The translations under genes and the position numbers were made by a program. A stretch of DNA of 64,000 nucleotides from Thermincola carboxydiphila. GTDB lineage: Bacteria > Bacillota > Thermincolia > Thermincolales > UBA2595. The stretch covers positions 1 to 64,000 of the forward strand of contig JAENYP010000004.1 of the NCBI GenBank assembly GCA_016841725.1, in the 5' to 3' direction. The notes below the pieces were generated by a model that was not told the origin of the DNA, made no database searches, and was given only the letters and a program-made list of their open reading frames with translations. This document shows, one piece after another, positions 27,472 through 60,440 of the stretch (its first letter is position 1; the number at the start of each line of letters is the position of its first letter).

Positions 27472-27545
27472 TAAAAAAAGCCCTCGCCCCACAACGGGAC
27501 GAAAGCCTTCACTTCCGCGATACCACCCGGATTGTTACAACCGTT
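27472..27545 (-). promoter_or_regulatory. Second (gene-proximal) T-box/antiterminator-terminator module
   Basis: The T-box core GGGTGGTATCGCGG (27515-27528) is followed by a GC-rich terminator stem (27480-27509) and a T7 run. It duplicates the module at 27588-27640 but has no stem I of its own that I can find. Confidence 0.75.
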
Positions 27546-27587
27546 ATTTCCAAAATTTGAGCCACCGCGTTTTTATGAATAGAAAGC

Positions 27588-27882
27588 AAAAAAGCCTTCA
27601 TCCATAAAGGGACGAAAGCCTGGTTCCGCGATACCACCCAATTTGGTTACAACTGTAACCCGCTCATTGCAGGTACGAGATTCGGCTGCCGGGTGCCGGC
27701 TGCTTATCTGATACCCTCTTCCTGATAACGGTGGAGTTCCGGCCTGGTCTACTCACGATTAAATAATCTTTTCAACCGACAGCTCGGGAGGGAATTTGGG
27801 CCTGACCATATCTTAAGGGGCTTTCAGTCCATGGCCCCTCTTCCCTGTCAAGACAGGTACTCAGCTTACTTATCTCCGTCAA
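27588..27882 (-). promoter_or_regulatory. T-box riboswitch, phenylalanine-type specifier
   Basis: A complete T-box leader is present: stem I region from about 27882, a candidate specifier codon UUC (complement at 27792-27794), the conserved CACCGTTA segment near 27730, the T-box core GGGTGGTATCGCGG (27626-27639) and a terminator with T6 (27588-27622). Uncharged tRNA-Phe should promote readthrough into aroF-pheA. UUC is read by position relative to the conserved flanks, not by modelling. Confidence 0.85.
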
Positions 27883-51196: not shown

Positions 51197-51450
51197 CAGG
51201 CAATAAAAGTAATACCCCCCATCCCAAAGAAAGAATTTCACTTTCTCAGGGACGAGAGGTTATTTCCCGCGGTACCACCCTGTTTGACCGAACAAAATCG
51301 GCCCACTTTGAAAATGCAGTAACGGGCATCAACCGTTGAAGCTTAAATGACTTCCCACTCCGGGGTGGATTCAACATCAGATTTTACCGGTTCGCACCTC
51401 CCACCGGCTCTCTGCAAAAATCGTCCGCTTACTGTCCCCTTCATAGTGTT
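51197..51450 (-). promoter_or_regulatory. T-box riboswitch, serine (UCC) specifier
   Basis: Stem I contains the AGTAAGCGGACG-type start, the distal CCGGTGGGAGGTGCGAACCGG loop region (near 51375-51400) and GAA-TCC-ACC, placing specifier UCC at 51367-51369. The T-box core GGGTGGTACCGCGG is at 51267-51280, and a terminator stem follows (about 51215-51255). It should respond to uncharged tRNA-Ser. Confidence 0.93.
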
Positions 51451-51478
51451 TTCCTATATTCATATTTAAAACAGTTTT

Positions 51479-51516
51479 CCAGCAAAAAAGTCCAGCAAAA
51501 AAGTCCAACAAAAAAG
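51479..51516 (-). repeat. Three 13-nt tandem repeats with T6 runs
   Basis: The minus strand shows three copies of a CTTTTTTG(C/T)TGGA unit directly after the glycine-riboswitch terminator, so its U-tract is repeated three times. Confidence 0.8.
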
Positions 51517-51539
51517 AGGTCTACCTGACGGTGACCTCT
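51509..51539 (-). terminator. Intrinsic terminator of the glycine riboswitch
   Basis: A 7-bp stem AGAGGTC/GACCTCT (51533-51539, 51515-51521) is followed by T6. It lies between the glycine aptamers and the Ser T-box. Confidence 0.85.
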
Positions 51540-51584
51540 GAAGACACAGAAGAATACGCTTCTCCTACTTTCGTAGGAAAAACG

Positions 51585-51782
51585 GCCCCTTCACTCTGTC
51601 CTTTTGCCTGAGAGATTCGCCGGAAAACCCGGTTTTGCTCCTTCGGCGCTTGCTAACAAGTCTCTCCAGAGGTCTGTCCTGTTACAGTAACATACACATG
51701 GTATACCTGAGAGTTTTGATCCGGTTTGGGACTACCGGACCTTGCCCCTTCGGCGGGTTTCCCCTTCTTCTGTAACATTCAT
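51585..51782 (-). promoter_or_regulatory. Tandem glycine riboswitch
   Basis: Two aptamers are visible. Aptamer 1 (about 51664-51780) has CCGCCGAAGGGGCAAGG, CTCTCAGG and AACAGGACAGA. Aptamer 2 (about 51587-51663) has CTGGAGAGAC, GCGCCGAAGGAGCAA, CTCTCAGGCAAAAGGAC and AGAG. The short linker between them is typical of the gcvT class. Here it precedes serC, not a glycine-cleavage operon. Confidence 0.95.
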
Positions 51783-53547: not shown

Positions 53548-54177
53548 TTATTCATTAACAACTATTTTATCTTCTGCTTTGATGTTTTTATGGCATGCAT
53601 TGCATGCATCTGTTGCCATATCCCCGTTGTGGCAGCGCATACACACCGGCATCAATATCTGATTATCTTTTTTAATAAGTTGTCTTGCCTGGGTGTCTGT
53701 AAACACAGCCGGTGTAAATTCCTTCTGCTTTTCCACATAATTAGTTTTGATATATTCTGATACGTGAAGGTGGGTTACATTGCTGTGACAGTCCACACAA
53801 TCAATTTGCTTAACAACATGCAATTCATGTGGGAAAATAATATCACCGGGCGGAGAGACGTTACGGGTATTGGTATGACAAGACCTGCAGACATCGTCTG
53901 GAATTATGCCTTTTTTCTCAACCGGGGCAGGGATAACGTTTCTCCAGTGTTTGTACGCAAAGGTACCAATCGTGATATCCTGATGACATCTTAAGCATCC
54001 AAATTGATTGTGAGACGTCACCAGCCAGGTGAAATAATTTGGTTTCATTTCATGGCAATTGGCACAAAACCCCACTTCTTTGTTAAAACTCTTATCTGTA
54101 AATGCTTGAATATTGAACAGGAATGCTGCTGTTACAGCAACTGCAAACATTGCCACCATTAATTTTATAAATCTCAT
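53548..54177 (-). CDS. NapC/NirT-like membrane-anchored hexaheme cytochrome c
   Basis: The 209-residue protein has an N-terminal membrane anchor (residues 4-24) and six CXXCH motifs at residues 38, 61, 97, 127, 179 and 192. The first two sit in a NapC/NrfH-like context (FCANCHEMKPNYFTWL, FGCLRCHQD). NapC-type proteins take electrons from menaquinol outside the membrane; six hemes exceed the usual four. It is the last gene of the cytochrome operon. Confidence 0.88.
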   Translation of the reverse strand: MRFIKLMVAMFAVAVTAAFLFNIQAFTDKSFNKEVGFCANCHEMKPNYFTWLVTSHNQFGCLRCHQDITIGTFAYKHWRNVIPAPVEKKGIIPDDVCRSCHTNTRNVSPPGDIIFPHELHVVKQIDCVDCHSNVTHLHVSEYIKTNYVEKQKEFTPAVFTDTQARQLIKKDNQILMPVCMRCHNGDMATDACNACHKNIKAEDKIVVNE

Positions 54178-54390: not shown

Positions 54391-55158
54391 TCAACCGGAA
54401 CTGGGAAACTTTTTGTCTGGAGAAATTGTGCCCCTTCCCGGCATCACCTGCTGTTGTTCCGTAAGCATCTCTAATTCCAATCCATGTTCAAGTTCCATAG
54501 TATCTACAGTCATTTTGCCATCCCACCATACCCAGCTCATGGGGAAAAACTCCGGTTGGAAATGAACATTATAGAAATGCCAGGTGAAAATAAAGACTAC
54601 TGCGAGTACAGCCTCATCACTGTGAGCCCACCGATAAGCATCAACAAACCACTTGGGAAAATACTGAAAGGTAAATTCCGGGAACCACATCAAAAGACCG
54701 GAACCGCCAATCATGAACATCCCCCAGAAAACCGCCCAGTAGTCAAACATCTCTTTCCACTGGTAGCGCCCAAATTTAGGATGTTCGTCACTTTTGCCCA
54801 ACTGGTAGGCAAAATACTGTTTTAATGCCGTCCAGGTTCCTTTTGACCATGGCAGCATCGGTATCGTCAAATTATGGCGGTACTTGACGGCCCAAAGAAG
54901 CGAATACCCTAAATGGTAAATACACGTTAAAAAAATCACTACTCCCGCAAACAGGTGCCAAAATAAGAGTCCATCCCCACCGCCGAAAAAGGAAGCAAGA
55001 GCTTGTGCCCAGGCTTTATGATGGAATTTAATGGGCAATCCTGTGATAGCACATACAATAAACGGAGCGTAAATTCCAAAATGTACCAGACGGTGGTGTA
55101 TGTTCCAGCGCTGATAAACTGTTTTGTTTTGCGGAAAACCGGAATTAATGTCAGCCAT
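54391..55158 (-). CDS. Membrane cytochrome b (FdnI/HyaC-like)
   Basis: This 255-residue protein has four membrane helices. Candidate heme-ligand histidines are in WNIHHRLVHFGIY (helix 1), LLFWHLFAGVV and TCIYHLGYSL (helix 2) and FTWHFYNVHF (helix 4). Such subunits connect extracytoplasmic hemes or iron-sulfur centres to the quinone pool. The ATG at 55158 follows AGGTG. Together with the flanking multiheme proteins it suggests a membrane quinol:cytochrome c module. Confidence 0.88.
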   Translation of the reverse strand: MADINSGFPQNKTVYQRWNIHHRLVHFGIYAPFIVCAITGLPIKFHHKAWAQALASFFGGGDGLLFWHLFAGVVIFLTCIYHLGYSLLWAVKYRHNLTIPMLPWSKGTWTALKQYFAYQLGKSDEHPKFGRYQWKEMFDYWAVFWGMFMIGGSGLLMWFPEFTFQYFPKWFVDAYRWAHSDEAVLAVVFIFTWHFYNVHFQPEFFPMSWVWWDGKMTVDTMELEHGLELEMLTEQQQVMPGRGTISPDKKFPSSG

Positions 55159-55217
55159 AATTATCACCTACTCCCCTTTTATTCTCCGGGATAATTAATT
55201 GCCTCTTCTGAATCTTT

Positions 55218-56111
55218 CTAATGACTGCCGGGCTTGTTAACATCAGCCCACTTACGGCGCAGCTCAAGCAATATACATATTAAAACGAAGCTAATACATG
55301 CTATTACCAGCCACGAAAAAACGATCAGTACCCAAAACGATACAGCCCCATCACCTGTCGGTGTTAAGCTATAATGCATCTTACCCTTGGCAAAGTTCTC
55401 CAGGGGAAAGAGGTGACACTTGGCGCAAGTCTTGGGGGTATTTTCGGTAGACACCATTGACTCTTTTTCTTCTGGGCCAAGAATATTATGACTGCCGTGA
55501 CAGCTGACACAGCTGGCAGCTTCTTGGCCGCCTAAAAGTACTGCTTTTGCGTGAAAATCAAGTTCATATTGCTCCAAAAGTTCTTCATGGCAGTTACCAC
55601 AGGTGTGTGGTACTTGATTGTGATTTATGGCTGCCTCAGGTACTTCTTTTTTATAAATATTATGAATGCCATGACAGTCACTGCAAAATGCATTTTGCCT
55701 GCCTTCGGCGCTGTTCACCTGCCCATGCACACTCTTGTTGTAATCAGGAACTACATCTTTATGACACCTTTGGCATTCGCCGTTAACCTGTGCAACAAGC
55801 GCTTTTCCCTTTAAGGCTCCGGTATGAGGGTAGTCGGTAATATTGGTGTGGCAGTATGTACATGGCATTGTACCGTGCATGGAAACCTCATATTTAGCCT
55901 TATCCACATAAAGGGATACGGTCTTACCGTCAAAATTGGCATTTAACCCCTGGGCTGCGTGGCAGCGTAAGCATCCTTCATTTATAATAACTGCTTTCTG
56001 TAGCAGGTCTTCTGCGAAAGCAGCCGGACCAAACGCAAGACAAATTACTGCAACAAGTGCGGCTATAACAAGAGTTTTTGCGGTGCAGCTTTTATTTGTG
56101 CCCATGAGCAT
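55218..56111 (-). CDS. Heptaheme cytochrome c with C-terminal membrane anchor
   Basis: The 297-residue protein has an N-terminal signal peptide (cleavage near AFAED, residue 34) and seven CXXCH motifs at residues 47, 84, 113, 143, 171, 201 and 229. A C-terminal membrane helix (about 258-282) and a basic tail follow, so the heme domain is extracytoplasmic. The start may be ATG 56111 or 56105. It heads the cytochrome b and hexaheme genes. Confidence 0.9.
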   Translation of the reverse strand: MLMGTNKSCTAKTLVIAALVAVICLAFGPAAFAEDLLQKAVIINEGCLRCHAAQGLNANFDGKTVSLYVDKAKYEVSMHGTMPCTYCHTNITDYPHTGALKGKALVAQVNGECQRCHKDVVPDYNKSVHGQVNSAEGRQNAFCSDCHGIHNIYKKEVPEAAINHNQVPHTCGNCHEELLEQYELDFHAKAVLLGGQEAASCVSCHGSHNILGPEEKESMVSTENTPKTCAKCHLFPLENFAKGKMHYSLTPTGDGAVSFWVLIVFSWLVIACISFVLICILLELRRKWADVNKPGSH

Positions 56112-56137
56112 CTCACCCCTTTCTTGTTCACAAAAAC

Positions 56138-56181
56138 GCCAGCATCGGATGCTGGCCTCTGGACTGGTTTGCCTCAGGACT
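56138..56181 (-). repeat. AGUCC-GAG hairpin repeat R5
   Basis: The minus strand has AGTCCTGAGGC, a 5-nt spacer, AGTCCAGAGGC leading into an 8-bp hairpin GCCAGCAT/ATGCTGGC, then GTTTTT. It lies 30 nt after the 64-residue membrane-protein gene and before the heptaheme gene. Confidence 0.85.
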
Positions 56182-56210
56182 AAAGTCCGGGTATTCTTTT
56201 AAAAGGTTTG

Positions 56211-56405
56211 TCACATTACCGGCGGCCAAATCAATGTTAAGGAAATAGTGAATGTTACAGTTGAAAAAATCACACCCAGTAACACGAATACCACCAGTTT
56301 GCCAATAAAGTTTTGAATCGAAAACTTATAGTAGGTAAGATAAGCACTGACACTGAAACCAAAGAGGACAATTAATAGTACACCAATTATAAACAGAGCT
56401 GACAT
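56211..56405 (-). CDS. Small two-helix membrane protein (64 aa)
   Basis: The product has two hydrophobic helices separated by a YYKFSIQNFIGK loop and ends LIWPPVM. It is clearly paralogous to the 65-residue product of the next gene upstream, including the WPPVM end. A G-rich ribosome-binding site precedes the ATG. It lies upstream of the heptaheme cytochrome. Function is unknown. Confidence 0.75.
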   Translation of the reverse strand: MSALFIIGVLLIVLFGFSVSAYLTYYKFSIQNFIGKLVVFVLLGVIFSTVTFTISLTLIWPPVM

Positions 56406-56436
56406 TAGCCTTCCCCCCTTCCCTAAAACAATTTTT

Positions 56437-56634
56437 TTACATCATTACAGGCGGCCATAAAATCGTGAGACAAAGTATGAAGGTAAATACTGAAGCAGCC
56501 GCCCCGACCATCATAAAAACCGCTACTTTTAATTTAGGATCCCTTAACGGAAATTTGAAAAATGAAATATACCCGCTGATACAGAAGCTGAATAAGCCTA
56601 TCAAGACCATAATAATTAAGAACAAAGTTTTCAT
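56437..56634 (-). CDS. Small two-helix membrane protein (65 aa)
   Basis: It shares the plan of its neighbour: helix, FFKFPLRDPKLK loop, helix, ILWPPVMM end. AGGAGGGG precedes the start. The pair arose by tandem duplication and probably belongs to the cytochrome complex, perhaps as partners of cytochrome b. Confidence 0.75.
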   Translation of the reverse strand: MKTLFLIIMVLIGLFSFCISGYISFFKFPLRDPKLKVAVFMMVGAAASVFTFILCLTILWPPVMM

Positions 56635-56752
56635 ACAATAGCCCCTCCTTTCAAGGAACCAGTTTACTACCTTCCGAAAAAATACCCGGTTACTTTACCT
56701 TGGACCTTAGAGTCCGAATCAAAACAAACTAAAAACTGGCCTTACAGAATCA

Positions 56753-56796
56753 GCCAGCATACATTTGCTGGCCTCTGGACTTGTTGTCTCCGGACT
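56753..56796 (-). repeat. AGUCC-GAG hairpin repeat R4
   Basis: Minus strand: AGTCCGGAGAC, 4-nt spacer, AGTCCAGAGGC into a 7-bp hairpin GCCAGCA/TGCTGGC. It begins 3 nt after the stop of the 57-residue Com-like gene. No strong T-run follows. Confidence 0.85.
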
Positions 56797-56799
56797 ATC

Positions 56800-56973
56800 T
56801 TATTTGTATTCAATTTTTGGTCTGTTTTGCTTTAGCGCTGTTTCACCGTCCTGTCCTTCAGGGTCGGCAAATTCAAGGATAACAAATCTTTTACAGTGAC
56901 GACACTTTACCAAAACCACATTACCCTTCAACTGACAAACAATCTTGCCACATCTGCACCTAACATTTTCCAT
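56800..56973 (-). CDS. Com-like zinc-ribbon mini-protein (57 aa)
   Basis: ATG 56973 follows AAGGTG. The product starts ENVRCRCGKIVCQ and continues VLVKCRHCKRFVI, giving CxC...C and CxxC cysteine sets as in Mu Com-type zinc fingers, then a charged tail. Mu Com is a small RNA-binding translational activator. It is similar to the 61-residue product at 57242, and each gene is followed directly by an AGUCC-GAG repeat. Confidence 0.75.
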   Translation of the reverse strand: MENVRCRCGKIVCQLKGNVVLVKCRHCKRFVILEFADPEGQDGETALKQNRPKIEYK

Positions 56974-57094
56974 AAAAATTCACCTTCTTTGCTAATAGTT
57001 TTACCCCCTTTACCGGTGGATGCCTTAGAACATTGCCTCCGCGGAACCATAAGATGGTTTTTATGGGTCACCTCCCCATCAAGGTATACAAAAA

Positions 57095-57137
57095 GCCAGC
57101 ATGTTTGCTGGCCTCTGGACTGGTTCGTCTCTGGACT
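57095..57137 (-). repeat. AGUCC-GAG hairpin repeat R3
   Basis: Minus strand: AGTCCAGAGAC, 5-nt spacer, AGTCCAGAGGC into a 7-bp hairpin GCCAGCA-AACA-TGCTGGC and T5. It has the same hairpin and 3' motif as R2, 60 nt away, indicating a local duplication. Confidence 0.88.
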
Positions 57138-57195
57138 TTCGGGCTTTTACTTTTTAATTTAGTTGATACTTCTTCATTTCTAGGGATAAAAAAAG

Positions 57196-57238
57196 GCCAG
57201 CATGTTTGCTGGCCTCTGGACTCGAAAGTCTCCGGACT
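57196..57238 (-). repeat. AGUCC-GAG hairpin repeat R2
   Basis: Minus strand: AGTCCGGAGAC, 5-nt spacer, AGTCCAGAGGC into the same 7-bp hairpin as R3 and T7. It starts 3 nt after the stop of the 61-residue Com-like gene and looks like its terminator. Confidence 0.88.
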
Positions 57239-57241
57239 ACT

Positions 57242-57427
57242 TTACATTGTCTTATGACAATTGCGTTGATCACTATTCACCCTGCTAATCAAGTGTGGTG
57301 AAATCGAGAGCTTATTATCTTCAGCTTTTATAAAAACAAACCTTTTACAGTGGCGACACTTTATTACCACAAACTCATGGTCTGACTGGCAAACTAATTT
57401 TCCGCAATCACATCTTACATCTAGCAT
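57242..57427 (-). CDS. Com-like zinc-ribbon mini-protein (61 aa)
   Basis: The product starts LDVRCDCGKLVCQ and continues FVVIKCRHCKRFVFI, matching the 57-residue paralog in all five cysteines; the C-terminal tails differ. GGAGGG lies 8 nt before the ATG. By analogy with Mu Com it may bind RNA or DNA. Confidence 0.8.
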   Translation of the reverse strand: MLDVRCDCGKLVCQSDHEFVVIKCRHCKRFVFIKAEDNKLSISPHLISRVNSDQRNCHKTM

Positions 57428-57834
57428 TCTCTCATCCCTCCAATATTCTATTAAACTTTTACAAATGTGCTAAATTTTTCACTTACTGTCTGTTGCCTGA
57501 ATATTCTGATTTCCCCCCAAAGTGTTAACCTAGTCGCAGACAGAATATCATTTGTATTTAGAAGGCCGTTTTTAAAAAATTGCTTTTCCAAAGAATCGCA
57601 TACCCTCAGTGTCTTGATTTGTGTACACTTCTTTACTCTTCTGAAAAATCCTCTTTTTTTGCGAAGGTTAGTGTCACTTTTCACAAATGCCGCGCAGCTT
57701 TGTGTTTTTATGTGCTTATTATATTGTATTCTTACGCTAAGATAAAACTCCTTGTTTTTCTATTAAAGAAAAATATTCCTTATTCTGAGCTTTTTCGACA
57801 AAAAAACCGTTTATTAGATTGACCTGCACACAAG
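57428..57834. other. AT-rich intergenic stretch without a convincing gene
   Basis: The 407 nt between the 61-residue Com-like gene and repeat R1 have no frame with a ribosome-binding site and no recognisable product. It presumably holds the promoter of the Com-like gene, but I see no clear -35/-10 pair. Confidence 0.5.
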
Positions 57835-57838
57835 GAAA

Positions 57839-57895
57839 GACCGGTTAACAAACCGGTCTCTGGACTTTTTGTCGCGGGACTCTTGCCTCGGGACT
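57839..57895 (-). repeat. AGUCC-GAG hairpin repeat R1, triple motif
   Basis: Minus strand: AGTCCCGAGGC, AGTCCCGCGAC and AGTCCAGAGAC with spacers of 3 and 4 nt, the last running into an 8-bp hairpin GACCGGTT/AACCGGTC. The hairpin sequence differs from R2-R5 while the AGTCC motifs are kept. It lies 100 nt after gyrA. Confidence 0.85.
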
Positions 57896-57995
57896 ATATT
57901 TTCGATTTTAAAGTCAGGATTTTTTATTTCAGTTAATTCTATTCGCATTTACATCAAAAATTCCTTCTGCTATCTGCCATTTTTCTGAAAAATAT

Positions 57996-60440
57996 TTATT
58001 CTTCTTCTTTTGTGACCACTTTTGCAAGCGCTACAACAGAATCCTTCTTATCAAGTCTCATCAAGGTTACGCCCTGAGTAGTTCTTCCCATGGAGGAAAT
58101 ATCTTTTACGTCCATCCGTATAATTATGCCCTCAGCCGTAATCATCATAATTTCCTCATCTACATTGAGAATCTTGATTCCGACCAATGGCCCGTTCCGT
58201 TTGGTCCGCTTTATTGTCATCATACCTTTGCCGCCGCGTCCCTGGGTCCGGTATTCCTTCAGTTTGGTTCTTTTGCCATAACCATTAGCGGAAACCACCA
58301 AAAGATGTGTCCCTTTATTTACGAGGTCCATCCCAACAAGACGGTCATCGCCTGATAAGGTAATTCCCCTGACACCCCTGGCAGTTCTCCCCATACTTCT
58401 TACTTCTATTTCAGGGAATCTTATTGACATCCCATTGGCTGTACCAATAATGATCTCATCATCACCTGAAGTAAGCTTGACATCTATTAGTTCATCCCCT
58501 TTATCAAGGGTCAGGGCTATCAGGCCGTCTTTTCTGGAAGAAATGTATTCACCTATAGGCGTTTTCTTAACAATACCTTTCCTTGTTGCAGTAAACAGGA
58601 ATAACTCTGTCTCAAAAGATTTCACCGGGATAACAGAAGTTATCGTATCATCACCCGCTATCTGCAGAAGATTGACAATCGCAGTTCCTTTAGCCTGCCT
58701 CCCTGCTTCCGGAATTTCGTGGACTTTTAACTTGTATACTCTTCCTTTTTTGGTGAAGAAGAGAATGTAGTGGTGTGTTGTTGTAATAAACAGGTGTTCC
58801 ACAAAATCCTCTTCTTTTGTTCCCATAGCCGTAACACCCCGGCCTCCGCGTTTCTGGCTCCTGTATGTATCCAGTGAGATGCGTTTAATATATCCATAAT
58901 GAGTAACAGTAATAACCATATCCTCTTCGGCAATCAAATCTTCATCATCAATTCTGGTATCATCGTCAGTGATTAGAGTCCTTCTCTCATCAATGTATTT
59001 ATTCCTGATCTCCAGTAATTCCTCTTTGATTATGTCCAGGACCATCTGCTCATTTGCCAGTACAGCCTTAAGATATGTGATTTTTTCGATAAGATTTTTA
59101 TATTCTTCTTCCAGTTTATCTCTTTCAAGACCTGTCAGCCTTTGGAGACGCATTTCCAGGATTGCCTGTGCCTGCTTTTCTGAAAGACCGAATCTTTCCA
59201 TCAAAGCAGCTCTGGCAACATCAACTGTACGTGATTCTCTAATTGTCTTTATTACAGCATCCAAATTATTCAGGGCAATTCGCAGGCCTTCTACAATATG
59301 TGCCCTTGCCTCAGCCTTATTAAGTTCATACCTCGTTCTCCGTGTAGTAACATCCTTTTGGTGTTCAATGTAATAAAACAATACTTCTTTCAGATTCAAG
59401 GTCCGGGGCTGCCCATCGACCAATGCAATCATTATTACTCCAAAGGTCTCCTGCATCTGAGTATGCTTATAAAGCTGATTCAGAATTACATTGGCATTGG
59501 CATCACGCCTAAGTTCAATAACAATCTGCATTCCGGTACGGTCTGACTCATCGCGCAGGTCTGTTATGCCATCTATCTTCTTATCCCTAACCAAGTCTGC
59601 AATTTTTTCTATAAGTCTCGCTTTGTTTACCTGATAAGGGAGTTCGGTAACAAGTATTCTCATTTTACCATTGGACATTCGTTCTATTCTGGCTTGTGCC
59701 CTTACCCTGATGACTCCCCGACCGGTTGTATAGGCATTGTTTATCCCCTCACGGCCCATAATGATTCCACCTGTGGGAAAGTCCGGACCTTTGATTGTCA
59801 TCATGAGTTCTTGTGGGGTTATATCTGGGTTTTCAATAACCGCAACTACACCATCAATTACCTCCCCAATATTGTGGGGCGGAATATTTGTAGCCATTCC
59901 TACAGCAATACCCGATGACCCGTTTATCAGCAAATTTGGTATCCTTGAAGGCAGCACAACAGGTTCTTTAAGGCTGTCATCAAAGTTTGGCATGTATTCA
60001 ACCGTGTCTTTATCAATATCCTTGAGAAGTTCAGTGGCAATTTTTGACATCCTGGCTTCAGTGTAACGCATGGCCGCTGCTGAATCACCGTCAACAGAAC
60101 CGAAGTTACCGTGGCCATCGATAAGAGGATACCTGGATGCAAAATTCTGAGCCAACCTTACCATGGCATCATAAACGGCCGAATCTCCATGGGGATGGTA
60201 CTTACCCAGTACTTCCCCGACAATCCTGGCTGATTTCTTATGCGGTTTATCGGGAGTCATCCCCAATTCATGCATTGCATATAAAATACGCCTATGTACC
60301 GGTTTCAGGCCATCCCTGACATCAGGAAGGGCCCTGCCGACAATAACACTCATGGCGTAATCTATATACGAATTCTTCATTTCAACATTAATGTCAATAG
60401 GCAGTATTTTTCCTGCACTTATTTCTGTCAAGTTTTTCAC
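57996..60440 (-). CDS. gyrA: DNA gyrase subunit A
   Basis: This 814-residue subunit has the [36 protein letters not shown] region with catalytic Tyr near residue 122. Six C-terminal beta-pinwheel blades include the GyrA-box QKRGGRG near residue 533. It follows gyrB by 20 nt. Confidence 0.98.

What the first reader, a model, noticed from the sequence alone, without database searches (positions are those of the whole stretch)
56138..57895. Family of five hairpin repeats with tandem AGUCC-GAG motifs
Within 1.8 kb, five elements share the minus-strand plan AGTCCNGAGRC, 3-5 nt, AGTCCNGAGRC running into a 7-8 bp hairpin, often with a T-run; R1 has three motifs. R1 keeps the motif while its hairpin sequence differs (ACCGGT versus CCAGCA), so the single-stranded AGUCC motif appears to be what is selected. 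Four of the five lie directly downstream of minus-strand genes (gyrA, both Com-like genes, the 64-residue membrane-protein gene). This looks like terminators with an attached recognition site, which I cannot match to a known RNA class.
Basis: seen in the sequence. Interest (0 to 1): 0.76.

Follow-up and report, generated by a model that had tools for sequence, protein, structure and literature searches.

The report
Com-like zinc-ribbon attenuator RNAs
The five repeats are copies of an undescribed RNA switch: a short two-armed hairpin that competes with a transcription stop signal in front of genes and is probably controlled by small RNA-binding zinc proteins (relatives of phage Mu's Com) encoded beside it.

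Summary
There are nine copies in this genome and over 100 distinct copies in about 30 of 398 sampled genomes of the phylum (Thermincola, Carboxydocella, Ca. Frackibacter and others). Rfam has no match.
(1) The two "tandem" motifs are the arms of one imperfect hairpin: outer stem GYC/GRC, a symmetric CNGA/CNGA internal loop, inner stem GRC/GYC and a loop of about 5 nt. Compensatory changes support pairing between the motifs (0 of 164 mispairs; inner-stem association p = 5e-11), not within each motif.
(2) The 3' strand of this hairpin is also the foot of the intrinsic terminator (100 of 103 elements), so the two are mutually exclusive.
(3) The elements are leaders or intercistronic attenuators of the gene downstream. 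Several sit between divergently transcribed genes.
The likely partner is the adjacent Com-like zinc ribbon, present in 28 of 30 carrier genomes (the other two are about 60% complete). Its phage Mu relative is reported to bind CC(N)2-3GAG loops; here the core is CC(N)GAG. GK-type proteins neighbour CNGA elements, KK-type proteins a different loop.
Binding, and antitermination as the direction of control, are inferred and untested.

The parts
57836..57895 (-). Element R1: three motifs (AGTCCCGAGGC, AGTCCCGCGAC, AGTCCAGAGAC) running into terminator hairpin 57861-57836; antiterminator hairpin core 57880-57856 (motifs 2+3; motifs 1+2 are an alternative)
57192..57238 (-). Element R2: antiterminator hairpin core 57237-57212, overlapping terminator stem 57217-57192; begins about 4 nt after the com1 stop
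57091..57137 (-). Element R3: hairpin core 57136-57111, overlapping terminator 57116-57091; leader of com2
56735..56796 (-). Element R4 (three-armed): hairpin core 56795-56771; hairpin A 56773-56752 without a strong U-tract; alternative hairpin B 56758-56735 followed by a U-tract
56138..56181 (-). Element R5: hairpin core 56180-56155, overlapping terminator 56156-56138; about 27 nt before the cytochrome c start
57242..57427 (-). com1: 61-aa Com-like zinc ribbon (DVRCDCGKLVCQ...IKCRHCKRF), candidate RNA-binding regulator
56800..56973 (-). com2: 57-aa Com-like zinc ribbon (NVRCRCGKIVCQ...VKCRHCKRF), candidate RNA-binding regulator
56437..56634 (-). 65-aa small membrane protein gene of the conserved cassette
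56211..56405 (-). 64-aa small membrane protein gene of the conserved cassette
55218..56111 (-). Multiheme cytochrome c (Cytochrome_C7) gene downstream of R5
54391..55167 (-). Cytochrome b561-like gene of the cassette
53548..54177 (-). NapC/NirT-like multiheme cytochrome c gene of the cassette

Best explanation
The elements are protein-dependent transcription attenuators. In nascent RNA the two motifs (A-GYC-CNGA-GRC, ~5 nt, GYC-CNGA-GRC-C) can form one imperfect hairpin with a symmetric 4x4 internal loop. Its 3' strand GRC(C) is also the base of the following intrinsic terminator, so only one of the two can form. Alone, the hairpin is far weaker than the terminator, so transcription stops by default. 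A Com-like zinc-ribbon protein (com1 and com2 here) binds the CC-N-GAG internal loop, holds the hairpin and blocks the terminator foot, so polymerase reads on into the downstream gene: com itself (autoregulation), the membrane-protein and cytochrome genes, and unlinked AAA/VWA and MFS-transporter operons. Shown computationally: the element family, pairing between the motifs (strongest for the inner stem), mutual exclusion with the terminator, leader position, and co-occurrence and co-variation with Com-like proteins. Inferred: that Com-like protein binds, that binding favours read-through in simple elements, and the signal. Three-armed elements such as R4 may work in the opposite direction.
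For: Pairing between the motifs: 0 of 164 non-standard pairs against 7 for pairing within each motif; Y2-R1 association p = 4.9e-11; 100% of cells paired, 10 compensatory double changes, 0 of 500 shuffles reach this, whereas within-motif pairing does not beat shuffles. Exclusion: GRC of motif 2 lies in the terminator's 5' arm in 100 of 103 elements and its R matches the partner without exception (G-C 75, A-U 24, G-U 4). Energetics: blocking GRC weakens the median stem from -17.7 to -6.9 kcal/mol; the antiterminator alone is -2.8 to -4.2 in R1-R5. Leader position: divergent neighbours in L127, L120, L076 and, in this genome, at C38 and at C14:204.85k (two elements). Partner: Com-like genes in 28 of 30 genomes with elements at E <= 1e-3; the other two are 61% and 63% complete; for the strict pattern, 25 of 27, Fisher p = 4e-27 by genome and 2e-12 by family. 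58 of 75 Com-like genes have an element within about 400 nt; GK-type proteins neighbour CNGA/CNGA elements in 57 of 61 cases, KK-type neighbour other loops in 16 of 16. Profile match to phage Com: probability 96.4, P 1e-9; single phage Coms score up to 36.6 against 23.9 for the best unrelated zinc ribbon. Phage-type Com recognises CC(N)2-3GAG in a hairpin loop, in a bipartite site with two copies of the core (PMC6483171). Rivals: CAT_RBD absent from 19 of 21 carriers; ANTAR absent from 3 of 21.
Against: No binding, expression or 3'-end data. Other cassette members co-occur with the elements too. The curated Pfam Com model does not reach its cut-off, and only three of six phage Coms score clearly above the decoys. 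Here the core is CC(N)1GAG in an internal loop; phage Com prefers CC(N)2-3GAG in an apical loop. Three-armed elements such as R4 would predict the opposite outcome on binding. Some Com-like genes (families f48, f14) have no recognisable element nearby. Covariation for the outer stem is compatible but weak (p = 0.10). GK/KK pairs are related paralogues, not independent events.
Confidence: 0.66

Rival explanations
1. Same RNA and same protein partner, but Com-like binding causes termination (negative feedback): unbound RNA reads through via hairpin A, and bound RNA frees arm 2 to pair with arm 3 and form the real terminator, as an anti-antiterminator.
For: A third arm followed by a U-tract was scored in 29 elements, roughly 20 of them convincing by eye, including R4 and its counterparts at the com2/membrane-gene junction in other Thermincola-family genomes.
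Against: Most elements (57 of 101) have a strong U-tract directly after hairpin A and no third arm, so loss of the stem must favour read-through there. In some three-armed elements both hairpins end in U-tracts.
Confidence: 0.15
2. The partner is another known antitermination protein (ANTAR, BglG/LicT or PyrR type), and Com-like genes are only passengers.
For: The anatomy resembles ANTAR and RAT sites: a small hairpin structure overlapping a terminator (PMC3369931). The motif looks like the PyrR site as I remember it (a lead, not tested).
Against: CAT_RBD is absent from this genome and from 19 of 21 carriers. ANTAR is absent from three carriers, two of them 99% complete with several elements. 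Rfam finds nothing at E <= 1. The protein-type/loop-type association would be unexplained.
Confidence: 0.08
3. Ordinary constitutive terminators whose upstream motif is an mRNA 3'-end stability or processing site for the upstream gene.
For: R1, R2, R4 and R5 follow genes closely; a T-run within 10 nt of the stem in 94 of 103 elements.
Against: Elements in divergent intergenic regions have no co-oriented upstream gene. The base that pairs inside the motif hairpin is also the base that pairs in the terminator, with no exceptions.
Confidence: 0.08
4. Mobile or REP-like repeats spread by transposition.
For: Several copies per genome, clustered.
Against: Positions are conserved at orthologous loci across families (com/cytochrome cassette, AAA operon, MFS gene), and orientation agrees with the downstream gene in the inspected loci.
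Confidence: 0.02

Closest known systems
Phage Mu Com and its mom mRNA site (Pfam PF10122, Zn_ribbon_Com)
   Same: Small zinc-finger RNA-binding protein; recognised core CC(N)2-3GAG, two copies in a bipartite site, C-G pair closing the loop (PMC6483171); profile similarity P 1e-9.
   Different: Phage Com activates translation of mom; these are chromosomal, in Bacillota, next to transcription terminators. First knuckle CxC[GK]K instead of CxxC; core CC(N)1GAG in an internal loop; below the Pfam cut-off.
BglG/SacY/LicT with RAT antiterminator RNA
   Same: Antiterminator RNA overlapping and excluding an adjacent terminator, needing a small RNA-binding domain (described in PMC3369931).
   Different: No CAT_RBD protein in 19 of 21 carriers; the hairpin here has a twofold-symmetric 4x4 loop; no PTS genes among the examined targets.
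ANTAR antiterminators (EutV, NasR, AmiR)
   Same: Two short motifs before a terminator, the second overlapping it, in leaders and between genes.
   Different: ANTAR sites are two separate hairpins with hexaloops carrying A1 and G4 (PMC3369931). Here the motifs pair with each other, and three carriers lack ANTAR proteins.
PyrR attenuation (pyr operons)
   Same: Protein-controlled attenuator; the motif resembles the PyrR site as remembered.
   Different: No Rfam match at E <= 1; no pyrimidine genes among the examined targets.

Membership tests
Mu Com family (Zn_ribbon_Com) | Passes the curated Pfam model | tested here: not met
   2 of 36 members at E about 0.06; own com genes not recovered by PF10122
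Mu Com family (Zn_ribbon_Com) | Homology of the zinc knuckles at profile level | tested here: met
   hhalign probability 96.4, P 1.1e-9; three of six phage Coms above all unrelated decoys
Mu Com family (Zn_ribbon_Com) | RNA target core CC(N)2-3GAG in a loop, bipartite | tested here: inconclusive
   CC(N)1GAG, two copies, in a symmetric internal loop against PMC6483171
Mu Com family (Zn_ribbon_Com) | Specific RNA binding | not testable with these tools
   needs EMSA
ANTAR target RNA | Two separate hairpins with hexaloops A1/G4 | tested here: not met
   inter-motif pairing supported, intra-motif not; with GUC/GRC stems the loops are four bases and lack the A1/G4 pattern
ANTAR target RNA | ANTAR protein in every carrier genome | tested here: not met
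   absent in G047, G381, G090
BglG/LicT RAT | CAT_RBD protein in every carrier genome | tested here: not met
   2 of 21, own genome none
PyrR binding loop / any Rfam family | Match to a curated covariance model | tested here: not met
   no match at E <= 1 in 56050-58000
Protein-dependent transcription attenuator | Conserved structure mutually exclusive with an intrinsic terminator | tested here: met
   100 of 103 overlap; base matching on both alternative partners
Protein-dependent transcription attenuator | Located in the leader of, or between, regulated genes | tested here: met
   divergent intergenic and intercistronic positions
Protein-dependent transcription attenuator | Regulated read-through | not testable with these tools
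   needs Term-seq or reporters

The most novel reading that the evidence does not exclude
A new class of antitermination system: a chromosomal branch of Com-related zinc ribbons, each with its own RNA hairpin specificity (GK-type reads CNGA/CNGA, KK-type reads a different symmetric loop), wired as autoregulated, partly opposed attenuators that control quinol/multiheme-cytochrome cassettes and unlinked operons in anaerobic Bacillota.
Probability: 0.55. Interest if true: 0.85.

Novelty: new variant of a known kind. Interest (0 to 1): 0.78.

Why it matters
If right, this adds a new RNA/protein pair to the few known protein-controlled attenuators and gives the Com fold, which in phage Mu is a translational activator, a chromosomal role in transcription. 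The GK/KK pairs look orthogonal within single genomes, which makes a zinc-ribbon RNA recognition code directly testable and usable as a genetic switch. It also points to a regulatory layer for cytochrome cassettes in anaerobes that include Thermincola.

Tried and rejected
Two separate mini-hairpins (ANTAR-like): rejected by covariation. ANTAR and CAT_RBD proteins as partners: rejected by absence. Known Rfam families: none. Phage origin: no convincing phage relatives of com2; viral contigs gave two hits without a terminator-like hairpin. Plain sigma-70-type promoter scans were no better than chance in the window and at C14 and gave none on the element strand at C38. Literature searches found no description of the motif or of chromosomal Com-like regulators. 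The PyrR literature search gave nothing usable. A structure prediction of the zinc ribbon was still unfinished after repeated collection attempts and is not used.

Full report
Observation. The five elements exist as described. A single exact motif is expected about 0.14 times in 64 kb. The tandem pattern occurs 6-7 times in this genome and 53 times in 11 of 41 relatives, with no hit for the reversed control, and in 27 of 398 phylum genomes against one control hit. A covariance model of the copies finds two weaker ones here, making nine: five in the window, two at contig C38 and two at C14:204.85k/204.77k. Rfam has no match, even at E <= 1.

Structure. I began with two mini-hairpins per element (GUC-CNGA-GRC twice), the ANTAR-like anatomy. 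Collecting variants with the middle stem base left free shows otherwise. Whenever the Y of motif 2 is C, the R of motif 1 is G (15 of 15, against 8 of 67 when Y is U; p = 5e-11). Pairing between motifs gives 0 non-standard pairs in 164; pairing within each motif gives 7, and neither within-motif association is significant. On the 50 distinct spacer-5 sequences, inter-motif pairing is 100% standard with 10 compensatory double changes, reached by 0 of 500 shuffles; within-motif pairing is no better than shuffles. So the element is one imperfect hairpin: outer stem GYC/GRC, symmetric CNGA/CNGA internal loop, inner stem GRC/GYC, apical loop of mostly 4-7 nt. The outer stem has no violations but little statistical weight by itself (p = 0.10).

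Competition with the terminator. GRC(C) of motif 2 is at the same time the base of the terminator's 5' arm in 100 of 103 elements; its R always matches the base opposite in the terminator (G-C 75, A-U 24, G-U 4). Blocking GRC lowers the median stem from -17.7 to -6.9 kcal/mol. In the window the motif hairpin alone is worth only -2.8 to -4.2 kcal/mol. Termination should be the default, and something must hold the motif hairpin to prevent it.

Position. In other genomes, elements lie between a gene transcribed away and a gene transcribed in the element's direction (lrgA / AAA-VWA operon; argS region / MFS transporter), and the same is true of three elements in this genome. They are therefore leaders. 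Inside the cassette they are intercistronic: com1-E-E-com2-E-membrane-membrane-E-cytochrome c7-cytochrome b-NapC, recurring with variations in Thermincola, Carboxydocella, Ca. Frackibacter, UBA3576 and others. Automatic gene calling gave spurious antisense ORFs in some cases, so orientation rests on the inspected loci. The names lrgA and argS are mine, from the sequence, and were not tested against a library.

The partner. Nearly every carrier locus with the cassette holds one or more small zinc ribbons ([DN]VRCxCGKIVCQ...IKCRHCKR). In the 398-genome sample, Com-like proteins occur in 40 genomes. All genomes with an element at E <= 1e-3 (30) have one except two about 60% complete; single hits between 0.002 and 0.02 in other genomes are what chance gives over 398 searches. 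The strict pattern gives p = 4e-27 by genome and 2e-12 by family. Profile comparison links these proteins to phage Mu Com (probability 96.4, P 1e-9). Against about 180 unrelated zinc-ribbon-like decoys, three of six phage Coms stand clear. The curated Pfam model does not reach its cut-off, so I call them Com-like, not members. The published SELEX target of phage-type Com is CC(N)2-3GAG in a loop, usually as a bipartite site (PMC6483171); the element has CC(N)1GAG on each strand of the symmetric loop.

Co-variation of protein and RNA. Com-like proteins with CxCGK neighbour CNGA/CNGA elements (57 of 61 pairs). Paralogues with CxCKK neighbour elements with the same stems but other loops such as UAUA/AAAA and GUUA/AGGA (16 of 16). 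Both sets of elements coexist in single genomes. Proteins with N, D, S, E or H at that position do not follow one rule, and the pairs are related by descent, so this is suggestive and not a count of independent events.

Mechanism and limits. The best reading is antitermination by Com-like protein holding the motif hairpin. Shown computationally: structure, exclusion, position, association. Inferred: binding, direction, signal. R4 and other three-armed elements (roughly 20 convincing by eye) contain a second terminator that uses the 3' arm of hairpin A; there, binding should promote termination, so one protein might switch some genes on and others off. I could not resolve this. Com stop codons usually lie within a few bases of the next element, which hints at translation coupling or cis-preferential autoregulation.

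Known systems. It works like BglG/LicT-RAT and ANTAR systems but belongs to neither: CAT_RBD is missing from 19 of 21 carriers and ANTAR from 3 of 21, and the RNA structure differs from the ANTAR site. I found no description in the searched library; that library lacks most subscription papers.

Noticed in passing
window 51245-51679 (-): A glycine riboswitch aptamer (51679-51586) is followed by a T-box leader (51453-51245) upstream of a SerC-like aminotransferase gene: possibly a two-input leader.
   Followed up: no
window 56735-56796 (-) and counterparts in L158, L028, L064, L088, L137: The element between com2 and the membrane-protein genes is three-armed: the 3' arm of the first hairpin can pair instead with a third arm followed by a U-tract, suggesting a switch of opposite sign.
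   Followed up: partly
window 57242/57238, 56800/56796; many loci: Elements downstream of com genes mostly begin within about -15 to +27 nt of the com stop codon, often 4 nt after it, suggesting translation coupling or local autoregulation.
   Followed up: partly
L205, L206, L208, L209, L210: Com-like genes directly after a D-Ala-D-Ala ligase-like gene with no recognisable element; in carrier genomes the cassette also often follows a similar gene, so these may be reduced remnants.
   Followed up: no
window 27473-27601 (-): Marginal Rfam match to BcKCsr2 directly downstream of a T-box leader, probably a leader or terminator look-alike.
   Followed up: no
window 56211-56634 (-): Paired 64-65 aa membrane proteins ending in IWPPVM(M), conserved beside the com genes, with no Pfam family.
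   Followed up: no
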